Assembly (NCBI RefSeq): GCF_018080005.1
Contig: NZ_CP073015.1
Span: 992,001-1,056,000 of the forward strand
Reading direction: 5' to 3'
Source of the DNA: Flavobacterium sp. CS20
Lineage (GTDB): Bacteria; Bacteroidota; Bacteroidia; Flavobacteriales; Flavobacteriaceae
Length of the DNA stretch: 64,000 nucleotides
In this document: positions 43,776 through 64,000 of the stretch, in pieces
Layout of the letters: each line of letters begins with the position of its first letter
Numbering within the stretch: the first letter of the stretch is position 1
Translations under genes and position numbers: made by a program
The notes under the pieces: model-generated
What the model was told of the DNA's origin: nothing
What the model saw: the letters and a program-made list of their open reading frames with translations, nothing else
The model's database searches: none

Positions 43776-43860
43776 TGGATATATACTAGTTGTAAAACAT
43801 TTAAGACCGAAATTTTGTAACATAAGAAAATGAATATCACCTTTTAAAAAAATAAAATTT

Positions 43861-44202
43861 ATGAGAAAATTAATTTTGACTTTGACATTAGCATTGTTCA
43901 CATCAATAGCTTTTGCGACTGAAATTACCGCTACGGTTATGTTTGAAAACTTAACGGACAAGGAATTAAAATCGGGAGAATTCACAATTATTGACCTGAA
44001 CAGAAAAATTGAGGTTTCTAAAGCAGAAAATTTTAAAATTACTTTGCCAGAAAAAGGGAAATATCAATTCAGTTTTGTGTCTGACGACTTTACTGCTTAT
44101 ACTTTTTATCCAACACGAATTAATAAAAGGAAAAACACAATCACAGTTCGATTAATGGAAAAAAAGAATTCAAGAACGGTAAAATTTATTCTTTCCCGAT
44201 GA
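43861..44202 (+). CDS. small exported protein of unknown function (cassette 1, copy 1)
   Basis: A 113-aa protein with a signal peptide (residues 1-19, ending IAFA) and a small beta-rich mature part with many Lys/Thr (ENLTDKELKSGEFTIIDLNRK, KGKYQFSFVSDDFTAYTF). It looks like a periplasmic carboxypeptidase-regulatory or transthyretin-like sandwich domain, but I cannot assign it. Its stop overlaps the next ATG by 4 bases (ATGA), so the two genes of the cassette are coupled. An identical gene is at 53083. Confidence 0.75.
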   Translation: MRKLILTLTLALFTSIAFATEITATVMFENLTDKELKSGEFTIIDLNRKIEVSKAENFKITLPEKGKYQFSFVSDDFTAYTFYPTRINKRKNTITVRLMEKKNSRTVKFILSR

Positions 44203-44480
44203 ATTTAGAAACTGACTTGACTGATGAGCAAATCGAGCAACGAATTGAAAATGGAACTCTGAATTTCATAATGCACGGAATTGATAGTTCTATACCAAAA
44301 GAATATGTTGAGTTCAAAGAAAAATATGGAATCGGACTGATAAAAGAGAATTGTGTAATTGACCCTTTGTCTTTCAAAAAAGCAACTGAAAATAATCAAA
44401 TGATTTTCGACTTTTTAAATAAAAAATACGGAACTGATTGGCTGAACGAATTGAAAACAAAACCATTCGGAATAAAATAA
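44199..44480 (+). CDS. 93-aa soluble protein of unknown function (cassette 1, copy 1)
   Basis: A small acidic protein without signal peptide (MNLETDLTDEQIEQRIENG..., ...DFLNKKYGTDWLNELKTKPFGIK). Features such as VEFKEKYGIGLIKENCVIDP resemble small cassette-borne hypothetical proteins of Bacteroidota. Function unknown. It ends 4 bases before the R'' box of the attC-like site, so the cassette is compact. The identical copy is at 53421. Confidence 0.75.
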   Translation: MNLETDLTDEQIEQRIENGTLNFIMHGIDSSIPKEYVEFKEKYGIGLIKENCVIDPLSFKKATENNQMIFDFLNKKYGTDWLNELKTKPFGIK

Positions 44481-44484
44481 AAAC

Positions 44485-44674
44485 GTTTTACAACAAAGGC
44501 TATAAGTAATGCGAGATTATGAGCAAAATTCAATGGTTTTGGCATTTTTTTCGCTCACAATTTATATATTTATTGATTGAAATTTATAAATTAAAAATTG
44601 TTCGCTTGGGTCGGTGCTGAATTGAAAGGTTTTGTCTTTTTTGGCTCGCACTACTCATAGCCCAAACGTTGCCA
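44485..44674 (+). other. attC-like site 1
   Basis: R'' GTTTTACAAC at 44485-44494 and R' core GTTGCCA at 44668-44674. The inner arms GGCTATAAGTAATGCGAG and CTCGCACTACTCATAGCC pair with only two mismatches. At about 190 bases it is longer than most attC sites (57-141), and the AT-rich centre can fold further. R'' is fully complementary to the core at 43789. Confidence 0.8.
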
Positions 44675-44761
44675 GTAATTTGAAAAAAAACTTTTCGCCT
44701 TCATATAATAATTTTTGCGAATTGACCTTTCCAACGATTATTAACAATTAAATAATATTTT

Positions 44762-45343
44762 ATGAAAAAATTATTACAAATAGCTTTCTTCTTTATAATT
44801 TTTATTTCGTGTTATGCGCAAAAGAATATTTCAATTAATTTTAGTATCGAAAATAAAGAAAGCTTAAACAAATATCTTAATGAAAATAACGTAACTATTG
44901 AAGAAAACGACCTATTTTCTATTAAGAGTTTTAATAGTTTCGCTCACCTGAATAATGATGACAAACTTCAAGTACCCGAAATATTATTCTTTAATTCTAA
45001 GGGATTTTTAGTTAAAAACAGGTTTAATGATAATGAATGTTCACAAGTAATTAATGAAATTGAAAAAATAGACTCTTTGAAATTTAATAAAAATATTACA
45101 ATAAATGATTGGTTAAAACACATCTCGCCTTTAAATAATGATATTACTGAAAATGGAAGTATTTACATTATAATAAATTGGGCAAAATTTATTGACAAAT
45201 TTAATGAACAATCATTCGAATGGTATAAGGAATTAAAGAATCAAGATTCAAATTTAAAAGTTAACTGTATTTTATTAAATTTAGATATACAAGAAAAATG
45301 GAACTTAACAGAAAAACAGAAAAAAGCATTAAATATTGAATAA
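44762..45343 (+). CDS. exported protein of unknown function (cassette 2)
   Basis: A 193-aa protein with a signal peptide (hydrophobic run then FISCYAQ; the Cys could be lipidated but the -3 residue is atypical). The mature part has a layout that could be thioredoxin-like (VPEILFFNSKGFLVKNRF, NGSIYIIINWAKFI) with no CxxC. Function unknown. It is the only gene of an 809-base cassette and ends 4 bases before the attC R'' box. Confidence 0.72.
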   Translation: MKKLLQIAFFFIIFISCYAQKNISINFSIENKESLNKYLNENNVTIEENDLFSIKSFNSFAHLNNDDKLQVPEILFFNSKGFLVKNRFNDNECSQVINEIEKIDSLKFNKNITINDWLKHISPLNNDITENGSIYIIINWAKFIDKFNEQSFEWYKELKNQDSNLKVNCILLNLDIQEKWNLTEKQKKALNIE

Positions 45344-45347
45344 AAAC

Positions 45348-45483
45348 TACTGGCAACAATGTATAACCGCAATTACGGCGGATCTGACTACGTCCGAATC
45401 CACTCGGAATTGCTAACGTCAGTGCTTAACCGAAAATCATTAACTTTAATCCCGTAACTGACGGTTATACGAGACCGTTAGCC
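45348..45483 (+). other. attC-like site 2
   Basis: R'' TACTGGCAAC at 45348-45357 matches, in reverse complement, the 10-base start GTTGCCAGTA of its cassette at 44668. Inner arms GTATAACCG and CGGTTATAC pair perfectly. R' core is GTTAGCC at 45477. Length 136 bases, within the known attC range. Confidence 0.85.
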
Positions 45484-45508
45484 ACAAGCTGAAAAAAGCC
45501 GACCGCAC

Positions 45509-45572
45509 AAACAGCACATTTGGTTTTTTCCCGACACAAATGCCAACCACTAAAAAACCAAAAGAGCTGTTT
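45509..45572. repeat. structured hairpin A at the left end of cassette 3
   Basis: Arms at 45509-45529 and 45552-45572 pair at 19 of 21 positions. The two mismatches are in the centre (ACA opposite TCT) next to a conserved CATTTG/CAAAAGAG context. It is followed by 'cttgcccacactctgacaaa'. A relative with different stem sequence but the same mismatch lies at 52787-52844. Confidence 0.65.
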
Positions 45573-45622
45573 CTTGCCCACACTCTGACAAAAATAACTA
45601 CTACCTGCCAATACAAAATTAT

Positions 45623-45652
45623 ATTGAATTTCAATAATTAAATGTATCTTTG
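45623..45652 (+). promoter_or_regulatory. promoter of the cassette 3 genes (TTG...TATCTTTG)
   Basis: A good Bacteroidota promoter: TTG at 45623 and TATCTTTG (TAnnTTTG) at 45645-45652, 19-20 bases apart. The -7 box overlaps the first ATG of the longest XRE reading frame (45642), so translation must begin later, at 45660 or 45687. An own promoter inside a cassette is unusual for integrons. Confidence 0.6.
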
Positions 45653-45659
45653 TGCCATT

Positions 45660-45884
45660 ATGTCGAAAAGTAAAGACTCTGAACCAATGAATCGAATTAA
45701 AAAGGTTTTAAAGGAACAAGGAAGAACTCAAACTTGGCTTGCTGAAAAAATTGGAAAAAGCTATGTAGTGGTTACAAACTATTGCAACAATAACACACAG
45801 CCAAGTATTCAAGTCTTAACTGAAATTTCACAGGTATTGGATGTTGACATAAGAGAGTTATTGGTTTCTACAAAAGACAATTAA
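45660..45884 (+). CDS. XRE family helix-turn-helix regulator
   Basis: A small DNA-binding protein of the Cro/CI type: NRIKKVLKEQGRTQTWLAEKIGKSY is helix 1-2, VVTNYCNNNTQPSIQVLTEISQVLDVDIRELL the rest of the fold (quoted in pieces). The frame is open from 45642, but the promoter -7 box covers that ATG. The ATG at 45660 would give a nearly leaderless mRNA and the ATG at 45687 (MNRIKKV) a short leader; the latter is the usual N-terminus of this family. It ends 3 bases before the TrlF-like gene and probably controls the whole defence-like cassette, as C proteins do for restriction systems. Confidence 0.85.
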   Translation: MSKSKDSEPMNRIKKVLKEQGRTQTWLAEKIGKSYVVVTNYCNNNTQPSIQVLTEISQVLDVDIRELLVSTKDN

Positions 45885-45887
45885 CAA

Positions 45888-48521
45888 ATGGAAAAAGAAT
45901 TTAAAATATTTGAAAACGGAAGCACTTGGTTAAGGGCTGACTTCCATTTGCACACAAAAGCCGACAAAGAATTTAACTATCAAGGAGAAGACAACTCTTT
46001 CGTAACCGATTATGTAAGTCAATTAAGTCAAGAAAATGTTGGAATTGCTGCAATAACCAACCACAATAAATTTGACTTCAATGAATATAAAGCCCTTGCA
46101 AAAAAAGCAAGAAAACAAGAAATATATGTATTGCCGGGAGTTGAATTATCAGTAAATGACGGAGCAAACGGAATCCACTGTCTTGTTATTTTCAATCCTG
46201 TTGAATGGCTTGAAAATGGTACAGACTACATCAATCAATTTATAACCCAAACATTTGCAGGAAAGCATAATTACGAAAACGAAAATGGTCGCTCTAATGA
46301 TAATCTGATTGAAACAATCAAAAAATTAAATGCTTTTGAGAAAGACTATTTCATTATAATGGCTCACATTGAGCAAAAAAGCGGTTTTTATAATGAGTTG
46401 GATGGAGGGCGAATCCAAGAATTAAGTAACAATCCTTTATTCCGTAAAGCCGTTCTTGGATTTCAAAAGGTTAGAACAAGAGATGTTATTGACAAGTTAA
46501 ACCTATGGCTTGACAATAACCTACCTGCTTTTGTCGAGGGTTCAGATGCTAAAAATATTGAAGGAGTTGGAACAGGAAATTGTGTCAACGACATTACTCA
46601 AAAAACATACCTTAAAATTGGAGCATTCAATTTTGAAGCGATTAAATATACTCTGTTGGATAAGCAATTCAGACAAGAGAAAGAAACAACCAATCCAGTT
46701 AATGGCTACATAAAATCCATCAGTTTTAAAGGCGGAAAATTAGATGGTTCAACACTTCACCTAAACCATTCTATGAACAACTTGATTGGTATTAGAGGAA
46801 GCGGAAAATCTTCAATTTTAGAAGCCATCAGGTATGCTTTGGATATTGATTTGAACCGAAATCAAAATGTTGATTTTGAATATAAAACTAATTTGGTCAA
46901 TGCTTTATTGGGAAGTGGTGGAAAAATAACATCTGTTTTGGTTGATGACCAAGGTAATGAATATAATGCTGAAAAAATTCTTGGAGACAGAACAAACATA
47001 TATAAAAACGGAGAATTGCAACTTGGTTTAAAACCCAATGCCATTGTAAAGAAGCCGATATATTTTGGTCAAAAAGACCTTTCCCAAATAGGCGATTCTC
47101 TTTCAACTGAATATCTAATAAGCAAATTGATTGGTGACCGATTATTAACTAAAAAACGTGAAATAGAAGAGAAAAATCAGGACGTTTTAAAGCTTATCGG
47201 AGAACTCAAAAAAATAGATACCAAAGTCGGAAGAAAAGCAGATATAGAAGCCAAACAAGCTGAACTGAAATTAAAAATTCAGGTTTTCAAAGAAAAAGAA
47301 ATTGACAAAAAACTCGAAAAACAAATATCTTTTGACAAGGACAGCAATTTTATCAAACGACTTGAAAAATTTGAGCAACGAGTAATTGACGGACTAAACG
47401 AATATGTAAGTGAGTATGAAGATAGTTTCCAAAGTTTCAAAGCATATTCGTCCAAAGAAAACACTAACGACATTGATGTTATAACACAACACTTTGAAGT
47501 ATTTGAAAACCTTTTCCGTGAAGCCAAATCCCTTTCATCAAAATTGGGTGCAGAAAATTTAAAGCTTCAAAAAATGCATCAAGATTTCAATGTGAAATAT
47601 GAAGCCCTAAAAGAAGAATTTTCAAAAATCAAAAGGGAAATTAATTTGCCCAACATTGAGGCGGACGATTATGTAAAGTATACTAAAGAGCTTGACCTTA
47701 CAAAAGCTCAATTATCCGAATTGAATAAACTATCGAACAAGAAAAAAGAGATAGAGACCCAATTGAAACAAACATTGGTCTCATTACAAAATTTGTGGCA
47801 CAACGAGTTTGAAATTGTACAAGAGGAAATCAAAAAAGTTAATGACGACCAAGATGCAATCAAAATAGCGGTTGACTTCAAAGGGAATAAGCAAGATTTT
47901 AAATCGTACTTAAAAGAGAACTTGAGAGGTAGTAATTTAAGGGATAACAACATTCAAGCAATCGTAGATAATTATAACGATTTGATTTCTGTTTATGAGG
48001 ATTTGAACCAACCCAAAACCAAAATTTCCGAAAATCTTTCTGATGTACAACTAAACACATTTAGAGAATATTTCAACAGCAATATAGAGGCGTTTTTAAC
48101 TTACCGAATACCTGATAAGTTTGACATTATTTATCGTGGACGACCATTGAACGAACATTCTTTGGGGCAAAGAGCTTCGGCATTGATTATATTCTTATTG
48201 ACACTAAAAGAAAGTGATTTAATTATCATTGACCAACCAGAAGATGATTTGGACAACCAAACCATTTACAATGATGTGATTAAAGTATTGAAAGAATTAA
48301 AAAATTCTTCTCAATTCATTTTTGCTACCCACAATCCGAACATTCCTGTTCTTGGTGATTGCGAGCAAGTCATTTCGTGTAAATATGATGCCAACAGCAT
48401 ACAAATAAATCTTGGAAGCATTGATAATCAATTTATCAGAAATGAAATTGTAAACATTATGGAAGGCGGTCAAGAAGCATTTAACAACAGAAAAAGAATT
48501 TACGAATTATGGACGCATTAG
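45888..48521 (+). CDS. TrlF-type PHP domain/SMC-like AAA ATPase
   Basis: An 877-aa protein. Residues about 14-230 are a PHP-type phosphoesterase domain (WLRADFHLHTKADKEF with H20 and H22, AAITNHNKFD, LPGVELSV, MAHIEQKSGF). Walker A is GIRGSGKSSILEAIRY near residue 300. A long charged region (about 420-680) is coiled coil. Toward the C-terminus come the signature region GQRASALIIFLLTL and the Walker B IIIDQPEDDLDNQTI, then FATHNPNIPVLGD. This combination is the TrlF-like family, related to SMC/RecN/RecF ATPases, and is found in defence regions. It likely senses or cleaves nucleic acid. Placed between the regulator and the AlbA-type gene, which overlaps its stop. Confidence 0.85.
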   Translation: MEKEFKIFENGSTWLRADFHLHTKADKEFNYQGEDNSFVTDYVSQLSQENVGIAAITNHNKFDFNEYKALAKKARKQEIYVLPGVELSVNDGANGIHCLVIFNPVEWLENGTDYINQFITQTFAGKHNYENENGRSNDNLIETIKKLNAFEKDYFIIMAHIEQKSGFYNELDGGRIQELSNNPLFRKAVLGFQKVRTRDVIDKLNLWLDNNLPAFVEGSDAKNIEGVGTGNCVNDITQKTYLKIGAFNFEAIKYTLLDKQFRQEKETTNPVNGYIKSISFKGGKLDGSTLHLNHSMNNLIGIRGSGKSSILEAIRYALDIDLNRNQNVDFEYKTNLVNALLGSGGKITSVLVDDQGNEYNAEKILGDRTNIYKNGELQLGLKPNAIVKKPIYFGQKDLSQIGDSLSTEYLISKLIGDRLLTKKREIEEKNQDVLKLIGELKKIDTKVGRKADIEAKQAELKLKIQVFKEKEIDKKLEKQISFDKDSNFIKRLEKFEQRVIDGLNEYVSEYEDSFQSFKAYSSKENTNDIDVITQHFEVFENLFREAKSLSSKLGAENLKLQKMHQDFNVKYEALKEEFSKIKREINLPNIEADDYVKYTKELDLTKAQLSELNKLSNKKKEIETQLKQTLVSLQNLWHNEFEIVQEEIKKVNDDQDAIKIAVDFKGNKQDFKSYLKENLRGSNLRDNNIQAIVDNYNDLISVYEDLNQPKTKISENLSDVQLNTFREYFNSNIEAFLTYRIPDKFDIIYRGRPLNEHSLGQRASALIIFLLTLKESDLIIIDQPEDDLDNQTIYNDVIKVLKELKNSSQFIFATHNPNIPVLGDCEQVISCKYDANSIQINLGSIDNQFIRNEIVNIMEGGQEAFNNRKRIYELWTH

Positions 48522-49663
48522 AATTATTGGATTTAATCCAAATGGGTGAATCGAGCAAGGTTCAATTTAAAATTCGGGTAAACAATGCCAACTCAATTGG
48601 TGCGGAAATGGTAGCCTTTTCAAACACAAAAGGTGGAATGATTATCGTTGGAGTTGATGATAAAACAAAGTAAATAAACGGACTTTCTTTTGAAGAACTG
48701 CAAAGCACAAATGAGCTTTTGGCAAATGCAAGATCCAACAACATAAAAGCACCTATATACATCTATACCGAAACAGTAAAAGTAGAAGAACAAAATCTAA
48801 TTGTTGCCCACATTTCAGAAGGAACAAGCAAACCGCATATGGACAATAATGGAATAATTTGGGTAAAAAACGGCTCTGACAAAAGAAAAGTAGTTGCCAA
48901 AGAAGAAATTGCCCGATTGCTTCAAAGTAGCGGAAACCTTTTTGCAGATGAAACAACAGTAACAGGAACAACAGTTAATGATATTGACGAAGAATATTTT
49001 CAAAAATTCATACTTGCAAAAACCAAGAAAACAATTGATGAATTAGGGCAATCAACCTCTACTATTCTTTCTAATCTTGGAATGTTGAAAGACGGAAAAA
49101 TTAGTCTTGGAGGTTTGCTTCTATTTGGGAAAAATCCTCAACAATTTAGACCAACGTTCACGGTACAATGTGTTTCCGTGGTTGGAAATAATATCAGTAC
49201 AAATGAATTTCGGGACAAAGAAGAACCTTTTACAGGAAACCTAAAAGAATTGTATGATAAAACTCTTTCTTTCATCACACGAAACCTAAAAAAACTGCAA
49301 AAAAGTGATGGTTTCAATTCTCAATCTGAATTGGAAATTCCTATTGAAACAATTGAAGAATTACTTGTGAACGCATTAATACACAGAGATTATTTTATTT
49401 CATCAAGTATTAAAGTATTCATCTTTGATAATCGAATAGAAATAATAAGCCCAGGAAAACTTCCTAATACACTAACTATTGACAACATTAAGATCGGAAC
49501 TTCCATACCAAGAAATCCGATACTTTTTACTAATGCAAGATATGTTCTTCCTTTTGTGGGAGTTGGTAGTGGCATCCCGAGAGCCTTTGAGAATTCACCT
49601 GATTTGGAATTGATAAATGACACAGACAGAGAACTATTTATTTCTGTGATTAAACGACCTTGA
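48509..49663 (+). pseudogene. AlbA_2-type ATP-binding protein, interrupted by an in-frame stop
   Basis: The true start is ATG 48509 (MDALELLDLIQMGESSKVQFK in part), overlapping the TrlF stop. The Schlafen/AlbA_2 domain covers residues 1-125 (GAEMVAFSNTKGGMIIVGVDD), followed by a RecG-like ATP-binding C-terminal part (EELLVNALIHRDYF, IEIISPGKLPNTLT, GVGSGIPRAFE). TAA at 48671-48673 (after DDKTK) stops the frame, where homologues continue as K/G-INGLSFEEL; the same frame goes on to 49663. Reinitiation at ATG 48719 would give 314 aa lacking the first 70. Either one base is wrong or the gene is recently disabled. Confidence 0.82.
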
Positions 49664-49666
49664 TAA

Positions 49667-52600
49667 ATGCCGATATTTCAGAAATCAGTCATACAAAAAC
49701 ACCTTAAAAATCTTGATAAAGAAAAGGTAGAACAGGCATTTGAAACATTCCGAAAAAATTATAGTCCTTCCAAAATTGAGCAAATAAAAACGCTCAAAGA
49801 AGAAGAGTATCAGGACGGATTTTTACGTGAAATATTTGTTGATGTTCTTGGCTACACGCTTCGACCAGATGAAAATTACAATTTACAAAGAGAGTTCAAA
49901 AACCAAACAGACGGAAAAAAAGCTGATGGAGCAATTTTAAAAGATGAAAATGCCATTGCGGTAATTGAATTAAAATCTACTTCTACCAAAGACTTAACAA
50001 AAATTACCCAACAAGCTTTTAATTATAAAAACAATCAACCAGAGTGTAAATACATAATAACCTCTAATTTTCAAAAACTTCGGTTTTACATAGACTACTC
50101 TACCGAATTTGAGGAATTTGACTTGTTTTTTCTTGACAGAGAACGATTTGAGCTACTTTACTTAATTCTACATAAAGAAAGTATTTTTTCAAATCTTCCA
50201 ATACAACTTAAAAAAGAAACGCAGTTTCACGAAAAAGAAATTTCGGAAGAACTTTACAAAGACTATTCGCATTTCAAAGATAAATTGTTTCACAATTTAA
50301 TTGCAAATCATCCAGACAATGATAAGTTGTTGCTTTTCAAAAAATCGCAAAAACTTTTAGACCGTTTTCTATTTATTCTTTTTGCAGAAGATAGCGGATT
50401 ATTGCCACCAAATTCGATTTCAAGAATCATCAAGCGTTTTGACATCTTAAAAGAAGAGGATGCTTACAAACCGATTTACGAAATTTTCAAGCAGTATTTC
50501 GGATATATGAATATTGGGCGACCAGGCAAAAAAGAATCCGACAATATTCCTGCATACAATGGTGGCTTATTTTACGAAGATTTATTGCTCAACAACCTAA
50601 ACATTGATGATGAAATTTTAATTAACGATTTAAAGAAACTATCAACCTACGATTTCAATACAGAAGTTGATGTAAATATTCTTGGTCATATTTTTGAACA
50701 TTCACTAAACGAAATCGAAGAAGTTACAGCAGAAATTGAAGGTACAGTTTCCGATCAAAAAAGAACAAAAAGAAAAAAAGATGGTGTTTTTTACACGCCA
50801 AAATATATCACTACTTACATTGTTGCCAACACTATTGGTAAACTTTGCATTGACAAAAGAAAAGAACTCGATATTGAAGAAATTGAATATGATGATTCGT
50901 TTCTAAAAAAAGATAAGACGTTAACAGTAAAAGGAAAAAAACTTTTCACAACGTTGACCGACTATAAAAATTGGTTGACAAATTTAAAAATTATTGACCC
51001 AGCTTGTGGTAGTGGAGCCTTTTTAAATCAAGCGTTAAACTTCCTAATCGAAGAACACGAAAAAATAGACGACATCATTGCTGACCTGACAAATTCACCT
51101 TTACGCCTTTTTGATACCGACAAAAACATACTTGAAAATAACCTTTTTGGTGTAGACATCAACGAAGAAAGTGTTGAAATTGCTCAATTATTGACCCAGC
51201 TTGTGGTAGTGGAGCCTTCGCACAGCTAAAAAAGACCGCAAACTTTCTAAATTGAACAATAATATTAAATGCGGAAACTCACTTTTAGCATCAGAATTTG
51301 ATTGGCATAAAGAGTTTCCAGAGATTATGAAAAATGGCGGTTTTGATGTTGTTATTGGAAATCCACCTTATATTAAAGAATACACAAACCGACAAGCTTT
51401 TGACGGTTTACACGACCATCCTTGTTATCAAGGTAAAATGGATTTATGGTATTTCTTTGGTGCTTTGGCTTTGGACATTATCAAAAAAGACTACGGTTTA
51501 ATTGGTTATATAGCACCAAATAATTGGATAACAAATGACGGAGCATCAAAATTCAGAGATTATGTAATTGAAAAAGGTAAAATTACAGAGTTTATAGATT
51601 TTAGCGATTTTAAGGTTTTCGATTCTGCAGGTATCCAAACTATGATTTACATTATGAAAAGAACGGACGATAATGAAAATTATGGTCTTGCCTTTTCCAA
51701 AGTTCTAAACAGCAAAATAAAACACGAAGATACACAACGTTTTTTGGAGAAAATAGTTGATGACAAATACGAATATTTTACTTCTACCATTGAGAAAAAG
51801 GAATTAGCAGGAAAGCCTATCAATTTTATCAATGGAGACCTTAACTTGATAATAGATAAAATATTATCAAAGAAAAACTTCAATTTAAAATCTGAAGAAA
51901 TTGCTTCGGGAATTGATTTATTACAAGATTTCGTAAACAAAAAGCATAAAGAAACTCTTGAAGATGTTGAAATAGGAGATGGTATTTTCAATTTAAGTCA
52001 ATCTGAATATGATGATTTAAACTTATCTGAAAAAGAAAAGGAATTGGTAAAACCTTTCTACACGACAAGCGAGCTTCTTCAATATTACGGAAATCCTAAA
52101 AATAAACTTTGGATAATCTATACGGATTCAAGTTTTAAAGAAGAGGAGAAAATACTTCCGTACCCAAATATTAAAAAACATTTGGATAGATTTTTAGATG
52201 TCTTTACATCTGTCAATAAGCCATATGGATTACACCGTTCAAGAGACGAAAAGTATTTTAAAGGAGAAAAGATTTTTTCATTACGAAAATGTTCCGTTCG
52301 TCCGAGATTTACATACACCGATTTTGATGCCTATGTGAATAGAACTTTTATGATTATCAAGACCGATAGAATAAACCAAAAGTATTTGACAGGGATTCTA
52401 AACTCAAATTTGATGGCATTTTGGTTAAAGTACAAAGGTAAAATGCAAGGAAACAATTATCAAATTGACAAAACGCCTTTAGAAAATTTACCTTTACAAA
52501 ATCCAAGTACTGAAATTCAAGAAAAAATTGCTGATTTAGTAACAAGTATTATCTCAAATACTCAAAAGAAATCTGACTACCAAGAATTGTTAGAAAAAGC

Positions 52601-52763: not shown

Positions 52764-52786
52764 ATGAAATAGCCAACGCTTAAAGC

Positions 52787-52844
52787 CATACACATTTGCA
52801 ATTCGCACAAGCCAACACCACACCCAAAATTGCAAAAGAGTATG
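52787..52844. repeat. structured hairpin B at the right end of cassette 3
   Basis: Arms at 52787-52803 and 52828-52844 pair at 15 of 17 positions. The two mismatches are again ACA opposite TCT beside CATTTG/CAAAAGAG. It is followed by 'tctttgccaacactgacaaa'. Compared with hairpin A the outer and inner stem bases differ but still pair, that is, they covary. Confidence 0.65.
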
Positions 52845-52884
52845 TCTTTGCCAACACTGACAAACAAACTGAAAAATAAAGCCA

Positions 52885-53017: not shown

Positions 53018-53082
53018 AACATTTAAGACCGAAATTTTGTAACATAAGAAAATGAATATCACCTTTTAAAAAAATAAAATTT

Positions 53083-55389: not shown

Positions 55390-55465
55390 ACATAGTGGTG
55401 CACTTACAGTTTGCCAAGCAGTAATACGTTTAAAAATTATCCAATAACATTAAAAATATAAGAAA

Positions 55466-55990: not shown

Positions 55991-55992
55991 GT

Positions 55993-56837
55993 CATGAAAA
56001 TAGGAATAACAGGTGCTACAGGCCAACTGGGCCAATTAGTATCAAAAGCTAAAAGACAAGAATCCCGATGCCAAATTAGTGGCACTCGTGCGAAATCCCG
56101 ATAAGGCAAAACCTTTAGGTATAGAGGCCAAAGCTTTCGATTATGAACAACCAGAAGCTTTACCAAAGGCTTTAGAGGACATAGATCGTTTGGTTTTTAT
56201 ATCGGGAAGCGAGATAGGTAAACGTGAAACCCAACATAAAAATGTAATCAATGCGGCAAAACAAGCTCAAGTTAAGCAAATTGCCTACACCAGCTTGTCG
56301 CACGCCGATACGTCGTCAATGATATTAGCTCCAGAACACCTTGCTACCGAAAAAATGTCGCAAGACTCGGGCATTCCGCACACGATTTTACGTAATGGAT
56401 GGTACACCGAAAATTATACTGCGGGATTAAAGCAAGCAGTAGAGCAAGGTGCTATAATTGGTAGTGCGGGAGATGGAAAAATTTCATCAGCAACACGTGA
56501 AGACTATGCCGAAGCTATAGCCGAAACCATCATAAACGATGACCATACAGGCAAAACGTATGAATTGGCTGGTGATCAAACCTTCACCATGCAGGATTTG
56601 GTCGCCGAAGTGAGCAAACAAACGGGTAAAAACATCGAATTTGTGAACCTTCCAGAAGCAGAATATGCACAAAAGCTACAGGAAATTGGATTACCTGAAG
56701 GGATGGCTAAAGCGTTTGCGAGTTTAGATTATAGCGCTTCTAAAAACGATTTGCATGATGAAAGTGGCGAACTCGCCCGTTTAATTAACCGTCCCACTAC
56801 TTCTTTATCACAGGCGGTTAAAACTGGATTGAATTAA
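55993..56837 (+). pseudogene. NmrA-like NAD(P)-dependent oxidoreductase (quinone reductase type), frameshifted near 56044
   Basis: Starts MKIGITGATGQLGQLVSK with the dinucleotide-binding GATGQLG. The frame is lost because of one extra A in 'tcaaaagctaaaag' near 56044; removing it gives SKLKDKNPDAKLVALVRNP and the open frame to 56837. The rest is a normal atypical SDR of the QOR2 type (ILRNGWYTENY, YELAGDQTFTMQDLV). About 280 aa when repaired. Reinitiation at ATG 56079 would lack the cofactor loop. Homopolymer error or recent mutation cannot be told apart. Confidence 0.85.
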
Positions 56838-56933
56838 ATTTTAAAATTACGGCAATAGAAACATAGAATCTATTGCCGGTTTTATTCTTTATTCAACACA
56901 ATTGGTTATTAGAATACGAATAGATTATTAATT

Positions 56934-57074
56934 GATCCTAGTCCACTATTGCAACGCTATAATAGGTCTGAAGAAGTGGTCAATACGGTTTGTTAAATAG
57001 CCAGTCCAATTTCTTCAGCTACCAATGGCGAAATATTGCAGATGAAAGGAGGTATTATTGATATTGTAATATAA
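56934..57074 (+). pseudogene. C-terminal remnant of a classical SDR oxidoreductase
   Basis: A 46-codon fragment reading DPSPLLQRYNRSEEVVNTVC, then TAA (56994-56996), then IASPISSATNGEILQMKGG to a stop at 57072-57074. The piece A-SPISSATNGE...GG is the typical end of short-chain dehydrogenases. The bulk of that gene is missing. It marks a deletion scar between the NmrA-like gene and the chimeric ORF. Confidence 0.6.
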
Positions 57075-57083
57075 ATATAGAAG

Positions 57084-57467
57084 ATGAAGGTTATTCCAGG
57101 ACATACATGTCGTGTAATTAAGAAAACTCAACTAACAAAAAATATGCTTCGCATAGATTTTGAAATTTCGCAATCTAATTCGGCTATTGTATTCAAACCA
57201 GGTTGCTATGTAAAGTTACACCTCCTCGTGACTAACCGAAAAAAGCCTAAAGTGCGCACTTATACTTTAAAAAATTACGATGAGGTCAATAAAATTCTCA
57301 CTATAGATTTTGCATTGCACCAACCCGCCGGCATAGCAACAAACTGGGCAATGTGTGCTTGGGCTATTGAACTGAACGCTTTATTCTTGTTTGGCGCTGT
57401 GGGGCTAATTTTTACGGGAGCAGGAAAATATTCAATTGATTATCGGTTGGGTAAAAAAACGGCCTAA
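57084..57467 (+). pseudogene. chimeric ORF: siderophore-interacting FAD-binding N-terminus joined to DoxX C-terminus
   Basis: An open 127-aa frame made of two unrelated families. Residues 1 to about 92 are the start of a siderophore-interacting protein/FAD-binding reductase (CRVIKKTQLTKNMLRIDFEI, KVRTYTLKNYDEVNKILTID, HQPAGIATNWA). From about residue 93 the text is the end of a DoxX family membrane protein (ELNALFLFGAVGLIFTGAGKYSIDY). A deletion that fused two genes in frame explains it best. The product is unlikely to keep either function, but the frame is open, so it may be made. Confidence 0.75.
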
Positions 57468-57487
57468 TCTAATTTTTTGCAAAGCAA

Positions 57488-58375
57488 ATGAATAGAAAGC
57501 AATTTTTAAAATCAATAGCTTTATTGCCCTTAATACCTTACAGTATGACATTAAAAGATTTAAACAAAATGACCTCAACAATGAGTAACACAGGTAAAAT
57601 GCCTGTGCTTTTCTTAGGTCATGGCGACCCTATGAATGCCATTGAAGAAAACGAATTTGTTTCGGCATTCAGAAAATTAGGTCAAGAAATTATAAGACCA
57701 AATGCGATTCTTTGTATTTCAGCACATTGGGAAACTAAAGGAACATTTGTAACAGCAATGCAAAATCCACCAACCATTCACGATTTTGGTGGTTTTCCAC
57801 AAGCATTGTTTGACGTTCAATACCCAGCAAAAGGAAGCCCAGAATTGGCGGAAGAAACCAAAAGTATTATTACCAAAACAGAAGTTGGATTAAACGATAA
57901 ATGGGGGCTTGACCATGGAGCTTGGAGCGTAATCAAACATTTATATCCAAATGCCGATATTCCGGTCATACAAATGAGCATTGATTATTCGAAACCGGCA
58001 AGGTATCATTACGAATTGGCTCAAGAGCTAAATAGCCTTCGCCATAAAGGCGTTTTAATTATTGGAAGCGGTAATATGGTGCACAACCTGCGTAGGGTGT
58101 CCTGGAACAAGCTAAACGAAGAATTTGCTTTCGATTGGGCTACCGAAGCCAACGAAAAAATGAAAAGCCATATTTTAAGTGGAGACCATCAAAAACTTAT
58201 CGACTTTAAATCGCAAGGAAAAGCATTTGATTTAGCCATCCCAACACCTGAGCATTATTTGCCTTTACTTTATACCTTGGCATTGAAAGAAGAAAATGAA
58301 AAGGTAACATTGTTTAACGACAAATCTGTTGGAGGTTCATTGTCAATGACTTCTTTAAAAATAGAACCTAATTGA
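57488..58375 (+). CDS. 4,5-DOPA-type extradiol dioxygenase (YgiD-like)
   Basis: A 295-aa class III extradiol dioxygenase. Expected metal/active-site residues are seen: the His in LFLGHGDPM, the His in ISAHWETKG, and the His in DHGAWSVIKHLYP and PTPEHYLPLLY. The family cleaves a catechol ring, for example of L-DOPA. The N-terminal RKQFLKSIALLPLIPY stretch looks like a weak Tat-like or hydrophobic leader, so a shorter start (MTSTMSNTGKMPV) is possible. It follows the chimeric ORF by about 20 bases. The group II intron ends 14 bases after its stop, on the other strand. Confidence 0.9.
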   Translation: MNRKQFLKSIALLPLIPYSMTLKDLNKMTSTMSNTGKMPVLFLGHGDPMNAIEENEFVSAFRKLGQEIIRPNAILCISAHWETKGTFVTAMQNPPTIHDFGGFPQALFDVQYPAKGSPELAEETKSIITKTEVGLNDKWGLDHGAWSVIKHLYPNADIPVIQMSIDYSKPARYHYELAQELNSLRHKGVLIIGSGNMVHNLRRVSWNKLNEEFAFDWATEANEKMKSHILSGDHQKLIDFKSQGKAFDLAIPTPEHYLPLLYTLALKEENEKVTLFNDKSVGGSLSMTSLKIEPN

Positions 58376-58388
58376 TGAGCATAGAAAA

Positions 58389-60383
58389 GTCGAGTAGGTA
58401 AAGGGGAATCTCACCCCTAAACCTCTCACAGAACCGTACGTGATAGTCTCCCATCATACGGCTCTTCTTAACAAGTCTATGGCGTAAAACCGTATTGCCA
58501 ATGCACAAACAGATTAGGATAATGCTTTGCAGTTTCCTGTAACCATTTGTAGGCAAAAAACCAGTGTTTACGCCTAAATCTCCGATATTTGTTGCGTACC
58601 CATTTTGCCAGACGCATATTCAAGAAACGAAATACATAGTGTAATTCACTCATTCTTACTTTGCCGTAATAATTAATCCAACCTCGTACTTTTTCTGCTA
58701 TTATGCCTGCCAAATCTGGCAGGCGTAAATGAACCATACGATGAAGTTTCATCTTAAACAAAGTTTGATTGATGCGTTTCTGTCGTTTACGACTGATTGA
58801 CGGTGTAAATCCCAAATGAAAGTTCCCAAAATAGCCCTTTACCATTCTTGGCTTAAATGTAAATCCAAGAAAATCGAATGTTACATAATGAACCTTAAAT
58901 GGTGGATGCTTCTTTTGGTTGCGTTTGCAATAAACGATATTGCTCTTGCCGTCTTTTATCTGCAATTTGCACTGTTTAAATCGGGCTTTTACCGCTTCCA
59001 ACGTCCGCAAGGCTTGTTTAAAATTATCGCAATGGATGATAATATCATCAGCATAGCGCTCAAACTTTACTTCCGGGTGGTTGTTCTCAATCCACTTATC
59101 AAAAACAACATGCAAGAAAATGTTTGCCAGTAATGGGCTAATAACACCTCCTTGTGGTGTGCCTTTGTCTCGTGAATGAATACTACCGTCTTTCTTTTGA
59201 ATTGGAGCCTTTAACCAACGTGCTACATACAAGTGAATATGCTTTTCTTTGGTAAAATGTCCTAATGCTTTAAGCATTAAGTCATGGTCTATCTCATCAA
59301 AAAAACTCTTGATATCCAAATCTATCACCCAATCCATTTTCATGCAGTTTTCCCTGCATTGCTTTATGGCTTGATGCGCTGATTTGTTTGGTCGATAGCC
59401 AAAAGAATCTTTACTAAACTGTTTATCTACAATCTGTTCTAATTCTTCTCTTATTACCATTTGAGCCGTTCGGTCTTACTGTTGGAATGCCAAGCTTCCT
59501 GATTCGACCGTCTTCTTTGGGTATTTCTACCTCGCGCATTAGTGCTGGAAAATAACTACCATCGCTAACCTATTCCATACAGGATATAAGTATTTCATAG
59601 GACGTGAATGTACTTCTTACTGACAAATTATCAACACCTGAGTTTACCTTTGTTACTCTTTACCTTTTTAAAGGCATCCCATACCTGTCGCTTTAATATC
59701 GGTTGCGACTTTTGTTTCTCTTTGAAAATCATCCTAAAAAAATCTTTAGTTGTAATACAATTTAAAACTGTTAAGTCAGTCCCTTCGCTCCATTTCCATT
59801 ACAGAAACTTCATCACTACTACAGACTAATCCGCCACTAATTAACAGTATCGCTACTTTCTACCTTGCCCTTCGGGGTTGTGGTATTTTTGCACTATTAA
59901 TTAGCTTCTTCTCCTGTTCCGTAATTGAGCCGTAAGCAAAGCTCCTGCCCTCTTTATGCCGATTGCCACTTGACCAGAAATAGGTATCATGTCAAGTTCT
60001 GTTCTCGCAAGACCGCCCATCCCTCGATTTTGACAATACTAAAGTTGTTTACGACACTTCTACAAGGGTTCAATCTCGTCTCTTTCAGCTTCTTTACTCC
60101 TACCATAGCAAACTACTCTGAAAACAACACAGGTAGTGCATTTAACCTTATCGCTCAAGACCAACCCGTGAAAGGAAAGCCCCATAAGGCGGTTTGACTG
60201 GTGTGCCTAATCACTCCCAGCCGAGAGACCAATCCTCATCGTACTCTTTACGTGAATCCACCTGAAACAAATGCCAGGGTCGTTTCTAAATACCAATGAG
60301 ACTCTCATCTCAATTACAGTTATGTTACTTGTTTTCAATGAACTTAATCACTATCTTGTATCCCCAAGTAACGCAGGACACAC
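58389..60383 (-). mobile_element. group II intron (bacterial, no endonuclease domain), antisense to the array
   Basis: About 1995 bases. Minus-strand 5' end is GTGTGTCC (60383 inward), which fits the GUGYG start. Domain V is 34 bases at 58431-58464 (minus strand GAGCCGTA ... TACGGTTC with a central bulge), followed by a GC-rich domain VI and the end CTACTCGAC at about 58389. The RT gene lies inside. The 5' boundary falls 4 bases outside the R'' box of attC-like site 5, so the intron sits against the bottom strand of an attC. Group IIC-attC introns known from integrons have just this target preference; class assignment here is inference. Confidence 0.82.
58477..59732 (-). pseudogene. group II intron reverse transcriptase/maturase, frameshifted
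   Basis: The ATG is at 59732 (MIFKEKQKSQPILKRQVWDA in part, AFKKVKSNKG). One extra A near 59646 breaks NKG-NSGVDNLS. The next parts KYLYPVWNRLA and SDGSYFPALMREVEIP lie in different frames, and a further shift follows LGIPTV near 59470. From 59460 a 327-aa open frame holds the RT core (FGYRPNKSAHQAI, DLDIKSFFDEIDHDLM, GTPQGGVISPLLANIFLH, FERYADDIIIHC) and the maturase X domain, ending LFVHWQYGFTP. No HNH endonuclease domain. At least four lesions, so the intron cannot retrotranspose unaided; splicing without the protein is doubtful. Confidence 0.85.
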
Positions 60384-60387
60384 GGCA

Positions 60388-60523
60388 GTGACTAACAACG
60401 TATATAAAAAATAGCGGTTCAATAATCGCTTAATCAAAAGAAAATGAATAAATTAAAGGTCACCTATAATCCGAAAAGTTAGTGCATAAAATCCGCTACT
60501 TTTCATATACAAAAACGTTAGTC
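60388..60523 (+). other. attC-like site 5
   Basis: R'' GTGACTAAC at 60388-60396, inner arms GTATATAAAAAATAGCGGT and ATCCGCTACTTTTCATATAC pairing, R' core GTTAGTC at 60517. The sequence is close to site 3, which suggests the two share recent ancestry. The intron boundary lies at 60383/60384. Confidence 0.82.
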
Positions 60524-60557
60524 GCAAGGTTATAAAGACATACAACACAAACACAAT

Positions 60558-60947
60558 ATGAAAAGTATTGACGCTTACATTTATATTATCATTAGTCTAC
60601 TTGGAGTAGCATATCCTATATTATTACAAGTTGTAGCCCGACTTGATGAAAAGTATGAATCAGAGCAAATTGTGAAACTTTTTAATAAGGAATGGGAAGG
60701 CAATGCTTTTCAATATTCATTGTATTCATCTCTAGTCTTAGTAGTTATATGGTCTTTAAAAATTCCACCTATATTTCAATTAAATGGGCTCTTAGGCTTT
60801 TTAATAGAGAATTCAGCCGACATTCTAATTGGATTAAATACGATTTTACTTGTGATATTCTTTTTTTTGTATGTGCGAAAAGTGTTGATTTATTATACTC
60901 AGACAGACCTTATTTCTTACCTAATCAAAAGGCACTATGAAGGATAA
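60558..60947 (+). CDS. membrane protein of unknown function (cassette 6, gene 1)
   Basis: A 129-aa protein with three hydrophobic segments (residues about 5-24, 50-67, 88-110) and a tail of mixed charge (QTDLISYLIKRHYEG). The start follows the cassette core by 41 bases. It overlaps gene 2 by 11 bases, so the two form one unit. No family recognised. The pair may be a membrane effector plus a cytosolic sensor, as in several cassette-borne defence systems, but nothing in the sequence proves it. Confidence 0.72.
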   Translation: MKSIDAYIYIIISLLGVAYPILLQVVARLDEKYESEQIVKLFNKEWEGNAFQYSLYSSLVLVVIWSLKIPPIFQLNGLLGFLIENSADILIGLNTILLVIFFFLYVRKVLIYYTQTDLISYLIKRHYEG

Positions 60948-62832
60948 CCCTGATTTAAAATATTTTTCTGTACTTTCTGATTTATTGTTGAAATCAATTA
61001 GAAATCAGCAGACTAATGTTTCTAAAACTCTTTCCGACTTTTTTTATGGTGCATTTAGACAAGTAAGAGAGCAATCTAAAAACAAACCAGTTGTGTATCC
61101 AGTCATTTATTACGAAGTTGTGTATAAAGCAATTGAAGAGTTGGCTATTCTTAAAGAAAAAAGAAATTACCTATTAGAGCATAGAACTGCAGGTGAAATT
61201 TGGCTTCTTGGAGAATTACAAGATTCTGAAATTTCAGAAGAAACATATTCTTGGATGTGGCGAAATTTACTTCTTGCAATTCGCTACAAGCAAGACGATT
61301 TAATTATGAATCATTGGGAAACCTGCCATCAATATTACAATTATAGTCTTCAATATATCCACGAAGAATACGATTACACTTCAGGAAATTTTCAGGTAAG
61401 CAACAAAGAAATAGTTGAGAAAAGAATAAATGAAAGATTGAGATTTATTGAGTTTCATTATGCATTAGGTGGTTTATTGACATACAAGGAGCGTTATGCT
61501 TGTTTAAAACGTATTTTCAATTACACTCAAAGTGAACCCCCTAAATATGAATTGCTCCCTGAGTCTATGTATGAAATATTTAAGTTTTATGCTGACATAA
61601 GAGACCCTTATGAAAGAAAATACTCTTGGATTTCTTACAAATACCCCTTTCCCGAGACTAGTGGAATCAGAGCGGATTCAGTAACAAAAAAATGGATTAT
61701 GTCATATATGGCGATTTTGTTTTTAAGACAGTATACCATATATCCATATTTAATAACAATGAAACCGTTAGATTTTCCACCTGTACCAAACACACAAAGT
61801 GAAATAAAACAATGGATTGAAGGTCTTGATTTCTTCAAAAAACTTGTTGCTGACCATTTACAAAATAGTCTTTTGCTAAAAACATTGAATCTTGACTTCA
61901 TTACAAAAGATTGGTGTGCTGAAAACAAAAAAATATATCCAACAGACTTCATTGATGAGTTTAAAGAGATACTTGAAAATGCATACAATATAAACGCTCT
62001 TAACCTCCCTGTAGCAGAAGAAAAGGTTGCTCTATTTGAAAATTCAACTACAAGAATAATTGAAGAAACATTTGAAAAACTTCAACCAATCAATAATAAG
62101 GCAGCAATACAAGATGACAATTCTGATAAGTGGTATGTAAGTGGACAAAGAATGCTTCAGGACAAAGATGCTTTTTCTGTGAATCCAGAAGTGCAAGACA
62201 TTGATTTTGACTCGTTCTTAGCAACTATTGTGTCAAGAAGCATAATTGACGGATTAGGTGAAACATTTTTAAGAAAAACATCACAATCATATTTGCTAAA
62301 GCCTGATGAATTATTTAAAGCAATTGACAATCTAGCAGTTGACGAGAATTATCTGATTGTTACGTTTGGACTTAACTTTGATTACTTCATTAACCATCTA
62401 AAAATTAATGATTTATCAACGACTGAATACAAGAAAATCCAAATTCATTCTTTTAATGGCTCTCATTTAGTGCGTCAGTCTTTGTTTGTGTTAAGAAAGA
62501 GTGACTTGCCAAGTATTTCAACAAAACCAATTGATGAAACAATAATTACAAAGTATTCTTTAAAAAAGATTAGTCAATCATTAAACCTGTTCTCTTCCGT
62601 TATAGATATGAACAATACTAGTGATGATGTTTTCATAGAATACAAAGAGCATAAATCAGACGATGAATTAAGAAAATCAGTTCTTTTGTCAATAATCATA
62701 TCGACAGAACTTAAATGGAAAAAGAATATTAAGGTAATTGAGCTTCGACAATTTTCAGAGTATAGACAGAAAGGAATAGCAAATAAATTAGACGATGTAA
62801 AACCAATTGACGATGAGAAACCCAGCAGCTAA
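60937..62832 (+). CDS. 631-aa soluble protein of unknown function (cassette 6, gene 2)
   Basis: No signal peptide or TM helix. The N-terminal two thirds are helical and rich in Trp/Tyr (EIWLLGELQDSEISEETYSWMW, HWETCHQYYNYSLQYIHEEY, in part), perhaps alpha-solenoid. The C-terminal third is mixed alpha/beta (ENYLIVTFGLNFDYFI, VFIEYKEHKSDDELRKSVLLSIII) and could be an enzyme or binding domain. I recognise no catalytic motif. The stop codon TAA is part of the R'' box (GCAGCTAAC) of attC-like site 6, so the gene and cassette ends coincide. Its co-translation with the small membrane protein argues for a joint task. Confidence 0.75.
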   Translation: MKDNPDLKYFSVLSDLLLKSIRNQQTNVSKTLSDFFYGAFRQVREQSKNKPVVYPVIYYEVVYKAIEELAILKEKRNYLLEHRTAGEIWLLGELQDSEISEETYSWMWRNLLLAIRYKQDDLIMNHWETCHQYYNYSLQYIHEEYDYTSGNFQVSNKEIVEKRINERLRFIEFHYALGGLLTYKERYACLKRIFNYTQSEPPKYELLPESMYEIFKFYADIRDPYERKYSWISYKYPFPETSGIRADSVTKKWIMSYMAILFLRQYTIYPYLITMKPLDFPPVPNTQSEIKQWIEGLDFFKKLVADHLQNSLLLKTLNLDFITKDWCAENKKIYPTDFIDEFKEILENAYNINALNLPVAEEKVALFENSTTRIIEETFEKLQPINNKAAIQDDNSDKWYVSGQRMLQDKDAFSVNPEVQDIDFDSFLATIVSRSIIDGLGETFLRKTSQSYLLKPDELFKAIDNLAVDENYLIVTFGLNFDYFINHLKINDLSTTEYKKIQIHSFNGSHLVRQSLFVLRKSDLPSISTKPIDETIITKYSLKKISQSLNLFSSVIDMNNTSDDVFIEYKEHKSDDELRKSVLLSIIISTELKWKKNIKVIELRQFSEYRQKGIANKLDDVKPIDDEKPSS

Positions 62833-62957
62833 CAGCGTGTATGTGCAATAGCGGGTGAAGTGGTAAATCGAAGGTCTGTGCTTCTAAGAAACTTTGTGCT
62901 AAACGGACAGGAAAGTGCATCTAATCCGCTACTGCACATACACGCGGAACGTTGGTA
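62825..62957 (+). other. attC-like site 6
   Basis: R'' GCAGCTAAC at 62825-62833. Inner arms GCGTGTATGTGCAATAGCGG and CCGCTACTGCACATACACGC pair with one mismatch over 20 bases. R' core GTTGGTA at 62951. R'' pairs only partly with the cassette 6 start GTTAGTCGC, so the cassette start may have been exchanged. Confidence 0.8.
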
Positions 62958-63443
62958 GCAACTACTCCATAATATTTTTAAAATTATAGGCTCACCCATT
63001 TTTTGATAAAGTAAGTTGAAGGATTTTTTTTGGTGGAATTTTTCTAAATCCTAAATGATAGGCATATCACGATGATTGATAACGAATAAAATCTTATCAC
63101 GACGAGAAAATCACAATACGCAACAATAGGCTGATTTGCAATAAAATAGTGAATAAAGAAAACGACAAACGATGCTAAATCAAAAATTAAAGCTAAACGT
63201 CAGCGAAATTTTATAACATCGAAATTATGGGAAATTTGAAACGTGAGTATGAAAAAAAATGGGTGCGAAAGGCTTGGGCATTTTCAGCAAATGTTCTCGC
63301 CTACTCCACCGCTACTACCAACAATGTGTATCATTAATAGCTGTGTTTGGGCAAAATTTTAAGGTTTGTGATTTTTTTCTATCTTTACCAATAAAAACGA
63401 AAATGTGTTGACTTTTTGCACGCCACTAATGATACACTCGCCC
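62951..63443 (+). other. cassette 7, no convincing gene
   Basis: A 493-base cassette from GTTGGTAGCAAC to the next core. Only tiny reading frames occur; a 36-codon frame from 63226 is not kept in the near-identical cassette 8. It is AT-rich with a few self-complementary patches. It could carry a non-coding RNA, a promoter or nothing. Confidence 0.6.
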
Positions 63444-63450
63444 GTTGGTA
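63311..63450 (+). other. attC-like site 7
   Basis: R'' CTACTACCAAC (63312-63322) matches the core GTTGGTAG of its cassette. Inner arms GTGTATCATTAATAG and CACTAATGATACAC pair over at least ten bases. R' core GTTGGTA at 63444. Confidence 0.8.
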
Positions 63451-63937
63451 GCAACTACTCCATAATATTTTTAAAATTATAGGCTCACCCATTTTTTGAT
63501 TAAATAAGTTGAATGGATTTTTTTCGGTGGAATTTTTCAAAATCCTAAATGATAGGCTTATCACGATGATTGATAACGAATAAAATCTCATCACGACGAG
63601 AAAATCACAATCCGAAACAATAGGCTGATTTGCAATAAAATAGCGAATAAAGAAAACGACAAACGATGCTAAATCAAAAACTATGGCTAAGCGTCAACGA
63701 AATGTTATAACATCAAAATTATGGGAAATTTGAAACCTGGGAAAGAAAAAAAATAGGTGCGAGAGGTTTGGGCGTTTTCAGCAAATGTTCTCGCCTACTC
63801 GACCGCTACTACCAACAATGTGTATCATTAATGGCTGTGTTTGGGCAGAATTTTAGGGTTTGAATTTTTTTTCTATCTTTACCAATAAAAACGAAAATGT
63901 GTTGACTTTTTGCACGCCACTAATGATACACTCGCCC
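63444..63937 (+). other. cassette 8, diverged copy of cassette 7
   Basis: A 494-base cassette that matches cassette 7 at roughly nine positions in ten over its whole length, in tandem. Differences are spread evenly and break the short frames, so there is no sign of coding constraint. Confidence 0.75.
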
Positions 63938-63944
63938 GTTAGCA
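63805..63944 (+). other. attC-like site 8
   Basis: R'' CTACTACCAAC (63806-63816), arms as in site 7, R' core GTTAGCA at 63938, which begins a ninth cassette. Confidence 0.8.
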
Positions 63945-64000
63945 CACATTAAAACCAACAAACACATTGTATTTACAATAATTTTTCGTAGTTTCAGCAT
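63938..64000 (+). other. start of cassette 9, cut by the window end
   Basis: Begins GTTAGCACACATTAAAACC and contains 'tttacaataatttttcgtag'. No gene can be judged from 63 bases. Shows that the array continues. Confidence 0.6.

What the first reader, a model, noticed from the sequence alone, without database searches (positions are those of the whole stretch)
43789..64000. Integron-like array with eight attC-like sites in a flavobacterium-type chromosome
Nine GTT cores divide 20 kb into eight complete cassettes. In seven of eight the R'' box near the cassette 3' end is the reverse complement of the core at its 5' end, even when the two are 7.5 kb apart (cassette 3) and even though the core sequence differs between cassettes. 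This is what excision and re-insertion of circular cassettes by folded attC sites must produce, and is hard to get by chance. Inner arms also pair. attC folding and R''/R' rules are known from integrons; their presence here in Bacteroidota DNA with very long and multi-gene cassettes is the new part.
Basis: partly seen in the sequence, partly recalled or inferred. Interest (0 to 1): 0.92.

Follow-up and report, generated by a model that had tools for sequence, protein, structure and literature searches.

The report
Integron-like arrays without canonical integrase
A flavobacterium carries long rows of exchangeable gene packages built like an integron, but the enzyme beside them lacks the part thought to be needed for handling the folded DNA, so an old question about how integrons arose becomes testable.

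Summary
Nine cores bound eight cassettes, each ending in an attC-like hairpin. Over 440 kb of the same genome, R'' matches the cassette's own 5' core at 5 or 6 of 6 positions in 44 of 71 pairs (10,000 shuffles: at most 16). The hairpin covaries at 16 of 18 pairs, its bottom strand folds better at 45 of 59 sites, one cassette recurs at 12 places with core-to-core edges, and 13 of 13 full intron copies sit just past the bottom-strand hairpin.

Its nearest curated family is integron integrase, below cut-off, and it lacks the I2 insertion (92 against 133 residues between motifs). At 23 of 25 loci with such arrays, the first cassette's R'' matches a core within 400 nt of the integrase stop. Model hits occur in 200 of 295 genomes sampled from the class.

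It works like an integron; a feature held to define the integrase is absent. Recombination itself was not tested.

The parts
41976..43757 (+). tyrosine recombinase, 593 aa; catalytic part about residues 314-582; no I2 insertion
   Evidence: Pfam Phage_integrase 3.1e-43; best NCBIfam TIGR02249 integron integrase 227.2 bits, cut-off 265, in two stretches; R440, K465, H530, R533, H556, Y565 are in the invariant columns of 21 relatives; motif spacing 92 aa against 133 in canonical IntIs
41976..42800 (+). N-terminal extension: three beta-beta-alpha-beta-beta-alpha modules (about residues 1-67, 130-190, 203-275)
   Evidence: AlphaFold2 models; weak Foldseek resemblance to XPB (E 0.019) and the SMARCAL1 HARP domain (E 0.29), none at E <= 0.001
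43591..43791 (+). end of the integrase gene plus attI-like site; 12 full copies in the genome (two are integrase gene ends, ten are leader modules)
43758..43791 (+). attI-like site; GATATATACTA then core GTT; holds TATTTTTG (43768-43775), a fit to the Bacteroidota -7 box TAnnTTTG (motif recalled)
   Evidence: same layout after the integrase of relatives; first cassette R'' matches this core 6/6
43790..44668 (+). cassette 1 (attC about 44486-44674)
   Evidence: identical over 880 nt to cassette 4, 0 mismatches
44669..45477 (+). cassette 2 (attC about 45349-45483)
45478..53011 (+). cassette 3, 7.5 kb, several genes: HTH regulator, TrlF-family ATPase, AlbA/HATPase_c_4 protein, type IIG restriction-modification enzyme in two ORFs (attC about 52885-53017)
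53012..53890 (+). cassette 4, copy of cassette 1 (attC about 53708-53896)
53891..60517 (+). cassette 5, 6.6 kb, with AraC-type regulator, DOPA-dioxygenase family protein and a group II intron (attC about 60388-60523)
58387..60383 (-). group II intron on the cassette's bottom strand, 13 nt past the GTT of R''
   Evidence: RF00029 and RF01999; reverse transcriptase TIGR04416 277.9 bits, cut-off 300; 13 full copies in 440 kb, all 13 next to an attC
60518..62951 (+). cassette 6 (attC about 62825-62957)
   Evidence: R'' only 4/6
62952..63444 (+). cassette 7, 493 bp, no ORF of 60 aa in the listing on the + strand; 12 full-length copies in the 440 kb
63445..63938 (+). cassette 8, relative of cassette 7 (attC about 63808-63944)

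Best explanation
This is an integron-like cassette system. The 593-aa recombinase is its integrase. It recognises the bottom strand of each cassette's 3' site folded into an 18-bp hairpin, cuts next to the GTT core, releases the cassette as a circle and puts cassettes in at an attI-like site just past its own gene, from which a promoter reads into the first cassette. The fold, the core-precise mobility of cassettes and the coupling of integrase, attI and array are shown by sequence; the chemistry, the circle and the promoter are inferred. The integrase does this without the I2 insertion of canonical integron integrases; the N-terminal modules may help bind the folded strand in the long form, but a relative without them (G060, 305 aa) also heads an array, so they are not needed by all.
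For: Hairpin with compensatory changes at 16 of 18 pairs in 44 sites; bottom strand more stable at 45 of 59, top at 13, Wilcoxon p 2e-5; R''/own-core match at 44 of 71 pairs against at most 16 in shuffles; a 494-bp cassette in 12 copies, conservation beginning at C/GTT in 12 of 12 and ending at the next GTT in 11 of 12; cassettes 1 and 4 identical over 880 nt with different neighbours; 13 of 13 full intron copies 13 or 14 nt past the R'' GTT on the bottom strand. Integrase linkage: of 20 integrase regions in relatives, 15 have attC arrays downstream on the same strand, 2 have them on the other side, 3 have none; at 23 of 25 loci that have such arrays the first cassette's R'' matches a core within 400 nt of the integrase stop (chance per locus about 5.5%). 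No canonical IntI reaches the cut-off in 60 genomes including the own one. Five stretches round other tyrosine recombinases of the own genome give no attC hit.
Against: No recombination was observed. I2 is reported as necessary for cassette capture (PMC7790495, passages). The window's integrase reads LDH where the 20 aligned relatives read LGH, so this copy may be weakened. Extrahelical bases are mostly absent (7 of 44). 27 of 71 pairs fall under 5/6, and 13 of 59 sites fold better on the top strand. The thermodynamic fold of one window site (52882-53019) does not give the attC hairpin as the minimum.
Confidence: 0.88

Rival explanations
1. The cassettes are real integron cassettes but are moved by a canonical IntI supplied from elsewhere (a plasmid or a past host); the adjacent I2-less recombinase is a bystander.
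For: Clusters of attC without integrase are common and can be used in trans (PMC9668308, passages). Canonical IntIs exist in other classes of the phylum: 105 of 395 sampled genomes over the cut-off.
Against: No IntI over the cut-off in 60 relatives; in the phylum sample only 1 of the 44 listed matching genomes from the own class is over it. The I2-less gene ends 26-135 nt before the first core at the 23 matching loci. Model R1 found one weak hit in seven 19.5-kb regions beside canonical IntIs, so the sites differ.
Confidence: 0.07
2. The hairpins are terminators or ssDNA-transposon ends, and repeats arise by homologous recombination or duplication rather than by site-specific recombination.
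For: Own-genome copies are abundant, which homologous recombination could exploit.
Against: R'' matches the far 5' core of the same cassette across up to 8.5 kb, which terminators or transposon ends do not predict; edges are at the core; the attI-like core next to the integrase matches the first R'' in other genera.
Confidence: 0.03
3. The arrays are relics: once active, now frozen, with the integrase of this strain inactivated by the change in the LGH motif.
For: Window integrase reads LDH; a second copy is truncated (residues 398-593).
Against: Cassettes 1 and 4 are identical over 880 nt, which points to recent copying; the reading frame is open over 593 codons.
Confidence: 0.2

Closest known systems
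Sedentary chromosomal integrons with IntI (integron integrase, TIGR02249)
   Same: Tyrosine recombinase at the head of an array; attI with GTT core; attC with R'' complementary to the cassette's own 5' core; bottom-strand preference; cassettes repeated core-to-core.
   Different: No I2 insertion (91-92 against 133 residues); score below cut-off; invariant G.T pair instead of regular extrahelical bases; integrase gene codirectional with the array at 15 of the 17 regions that have arrays, whereas the two canonical arrays I looked at closely lie on the other side; an N-terminal extension in the long form.
Integron-like subgroup of tyrosine recombinases (PMC8138268)
   Different: The passages I saw do not connect insertion-less members with attC arrays.
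XerA / archaeal Xer recombinases
   Same: 4a8e is the best PDB sequence match (4.5e-45); spacing without insertion.
   Different: No cassette arrays known to me (recalled).
Cassettes whose attC is replaced by attI ('delta-attI-type', PMC12901181)
   Same: The ten leader modules run from a cassette core to an attI core, like attC-ORF-attI cassettes that IntI1 can excise (passages).
   Different: Here the piece carries the end of the integrase gene and is dispersed in one genome.
Group IIC-attC introns
   Same: On the attC bottom strand, opposite to the cassette (PMC7923331 passages).
   Different: Inserted 13-14 nt past the R'' GTT, leaving attC whole, rather than within R'' at TTGT/T.

Membership tests
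Integron (cassette platform) | attC-type site: inverse core complementary to the cassette's 5' core, pairing arms | tested here: met
Integron (cassette platform) | preference of the bottom strand for folding | tested here: met
   45 of 59 bottom, 13 top, 1 tie; mean difference 1.18 kcal/mol
Integron (cassette platform) | extrahelical bases in the attC arm | tested here: not met
   extra base in 7 of 44 aligned sites; invariant G.T pair 44 of 44 instead
Integron (cassette platform) | attI next to the integrase gene, matching the first cassette | tested here: met
   23 of 25 loci that have same-strand arrays
Integron (cassette platform) | cassette promoter in or near attI | tested here: inconclusive
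   TAnnTTTG-like box by eye in the window and in several relatives; not measured, not in all
Integron (cassette platform) | core-precise gain and loss of cassettes | tested here: met
   within one genome: 12 copies, edges at the core. Not tested between strains of one species, as only one genome per species is held
Integron integrase IntI | I2 / additional domain near patch III | tested here: not met
   62 residues of IntI4 face 18 here; spacing 91-92 in 21 of 21 against 133 in 20 of 20 measurable canonical IntIs, 4 unmeasured
Integron integrase IntI | score over the TIGR02249 cut-off | tested here: not met
   227.2 against 265 bits
Integron integrase IntI | catalytic residues of tyrosine recombinases | tested here: met
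   invariant columns
Integron integrase IntI | recombination of folded attC with attI | not testable with these tools
   bench assay needed
Group IIC-attC intron | insertion on the attC bottom strand | tested here: met
   13 of 13 full copies in 440 kb
Group IIC-attC intron | IIC class by RNA and reverse transcriptase | not tested
   Rfam gives group II families only

The most novel reading that the evidence does not exclude
Recombination of folded single-stranded cassette sites does not need I2. A whole lineage of I2-less integrases, sister to canonical IntI in the tree, runs integron-like arrays through the flavobacterial class and beyond it; the common ancestor of both lineages may already have used folded attC sites, and I2 would then be a later refinement of one branch, not the origin of the integron.
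Probability: 0.6. Interest if true: 0.96.

Novelty: new variant of a known kind. Interest (0 to 1): 0.9.

Why it matters
The I2 helix is described as what let integron integrases move from double-strand to single-strand recombination, as necessary for cassette capture and as found in no other protein (PMC7790495, passages). Here are integrases without it at the head of arrays with full attC grammar, in many genera. Either I2 is dispensable or another part does its work; both can be tested with one enzyme and one attC. It also suggests that integron surveys built on canonical IntI undercount: the IntegronFinder 2.0 paper reports for Bacteroidetes proper only In0 earlier and one complete integron in Salinibacter ruber (passages), whereas the model made here has hits in 200 of 295 genomes drawn from the window's class. 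The cassettes carry defence genes of several kilobases.

Tried and rejected
HARP-like domains in the N-terminus as the replacement for I2: the fold resemblance is weak (best XPB E 0.019, HARP E 0.29, none at E <= 0.001), no PDB sequence match, no Pfam match over a cut-off, and a relative without the extension heads an array (L067). Kept only as an idea.

A one-clade test of array-linked I2-less rows plus canonical IntIs was rejected (p 5e-31), because nine other I2-less rows fall among the former. Three of these nine (L160, L162, L167) turned out to have arrays by the arm scan; one (L165) has two model hits; L161 and L163 show no more arm pairs than shuffles; L159, L164 and L166 end on the contig. 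The R''-match count has no shuffle control of its own. The I2-less clade has only 81/85 support.

Correlating the variable 5 bases of the leader copies with neighbouring cores by eye gave nothing. Cassette sharing between species with the 494-bp cassette gave one partial match, so order was not compared between genomes. Ten paper searches listed nothing on I2-less integrases with arrays; the library holds open-licence papers only, so this is no proof of absence in print. The class count scored at most 11 candidates per genome, uses per-genome E-values, and has no control from another phylum; some genomes have a single hit.

Full report
Observation. The window lies at G000:C1:992001-1056000 of a 3,064,238-base single-contig genome; relatives with near integrases bear the titles Mesohalobacter halotolerans, Flavobacteriaceae bacterium 14752, uncultured Psychroflexus and Psychroflexus aestuariivivens. 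Nine GTT cores bound eight cassettes of 493 to 7,534 bp. A scan for pairing arms between AAC and GTT finds these sites and about fifty more in two stretches of the same genome (140 and 300 kb), against 2, 3, 2 and 11 sites in single-base shuffles of the four strands.

The grammar. Each cassette's R'' is the reverse complement of the core at its own far 5' end. With the covariance-model sites and attI-like sites in those stretches, 44 of 71 pairs match at 5 or 6 of 6 variable positions and 31 at 6; shuffles reach at most 16 and 6. Pairs over 4 kb apart: 7 of 14 reach 5/6. Alignment of 44 bottom-strand sites gives an 18-bp hairpin with double-sided changes at 16 of 18 pairs; one pair is G.T in 44 of 44. 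On the top strand that pair is A.C, and the bottom strand folds better at 45 of 59 sites, the top at 13.

Mobility. A 494-bp cassette has 12 full-length copies; conservation begins at C/GTT in all 12 and ends right after the next GTT in 11, with different neighbours outside. Cassettes 1 and 4 are identical over 880 nt. A group II intron has 13 full copies in the 440 kb (97.8-100% identical); read off the printed junctions, 11 lie 13 nt and 2 lie 14 nt past the GTT of R'' on the bottom strand, and each coincides with a model attC hit. A retroelement thus singles out the same strand and place.

The enzyme. The 593-aa recombinase at 41976-43757 ends 31 nt before the first core. Best curated family: integron integrase TIGR02249, 227.2 bits under a cut-off of 265, in two stretches. 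Against the solved integron integrase 2a3v the alignment breaks where 62 residues of the chain face 18 here, which is the I2 region. Arg-to-HxxR spacing is 91-92 in 21 of 21 I2-less proteins and 133 in the 20 canonical IntIs of 24 where the motif was found. The whole-protein model's best PDB neighbours are 2a3v and XerA (pLDDT 79.7, pTM 0.43). The N-terminus holds three beta-beta-alpha-beta-beta-alpha modules with weak likeness to XPB and the HARP domain; shorter relatives have one module or none.

Linkage in other genomes. The integrase has matches in 59 of 100 relatives at E <= 1e-40; ten of 26 same-genus relatives have the long form. The attC model has hits in 44 of 60 relatives at E <= 1e-4, 17 of 30 genera. 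Of 20 integrase regions fetched, 15 carry arrays downstream on the same strand, two on the other side, three none (two of those are under 4.5 kb). A further set adds nine loci with same-strand sites. At 23 of the 25 same-strand loci (window included) the first cassette's R'' matches a core 26-135 nt past the integrase stop at 5/6 or better; the failures are L074 and L135. Chance is about 5.5% per stretch. No IntI passes the cut-off in 60 genomes. In 395 genomes across the phylum 105 pass, but only one of the 44 listed matching genomes of the own class. Model R1 finds one weak hit in seven regions beside canonical IntIs, while the arm scan finds arrays at two of them (13 and 8 sites on the + strand), so the two kinds of attC differ.

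Beyond the class. Three I2-less integrases from other classes (L160, L162, L167) have arrays by the arm scan, not by R1, again downstream with a TTACAGTA/GTT or similar junction in L160 and L167. In the tree canonical IntIs (100/99) are sister to an I2-less clade (81/85), with two own-genome Xer-type proteins and L165_0 outside (99/99). This fits I2 gained on the IntI branch after cassettes, I2 lost, or two origins; the tree does not decide.

Leader modules. The last 166 bp of the integrase gene plus the attI-like site recur as 12 full copies in this genome and one each in four relatives. Two are integrase gene ends (one gene truncated); ten are free modules, nine of which start at a cassette core. 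They look like cassettes whose 3' site is attI, a kind known in class 1 and 2 integrons (PMC12901181, passages), and would plant entry sites and perhaps promoters inside arrays (inferred).

Mechanism, shown and inferred. Shown: fold, covariation, own-core match, core-precise copies, linkage to the integrase and its attI-like core. Inferred: cleavage of the folded bottom strand, circle, replicative resolution as in integrons (recalled), promoter, and that the I2-less enzyme is the actor.

Filing. It works like an integron. As an IntI it fails a defining feature (I2) and the family cut-off, so I do not file the enzyme as IntI; I call the whole an integron-like system with I2-less integrase, a new variant of a known kind.

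Noticed in passing
window 43636-43640 and the 11 other full leader copies: Among 12 copies of 201 bp only 10 positions vary, and five of them are consecutive, inside the codons of the catalytic LGH motif (seven variants). It recalls the 5-base coupling sequences left by conjugative transposons (recalled), or a mutation hot spot.
   Followed up: partly
after cassette cores, for example own genome 68651-68793 and 871932-872232; printed at 11 places besides the reference: A repeated element of about 130 bp (TCCCTCATAGAC to TTAGTCAGAA) with an inverted repeat sits right behind several cassette cores, once as a tandem pair.
   Followed up: partly
window 49667-51229 and 51252-52763: A type IIG restriction-modification enzyme is split into two ORFs; bases of a short repeat (family D14) flank the break.
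   Followed up: no
window 36112-41606, minus strand: Very long repetitive surface-protein-like ORFs in pieces just upstream of the integrase.
   Followed up: no
own genome 892836-893423: A second, truncated integrase copy (residues 398-593, 99% identical) heads another array.
   Followed up: partly
plasmid NZ_CP041688.1 of Chryseobacterium sp. SNU WT5: A 43% relative of the integrase over residues 318-581, annotated 'site-specific tyrosine recombinase/integron integrase' (listing only): the system may also travel on plasmids.
   Followed up: no
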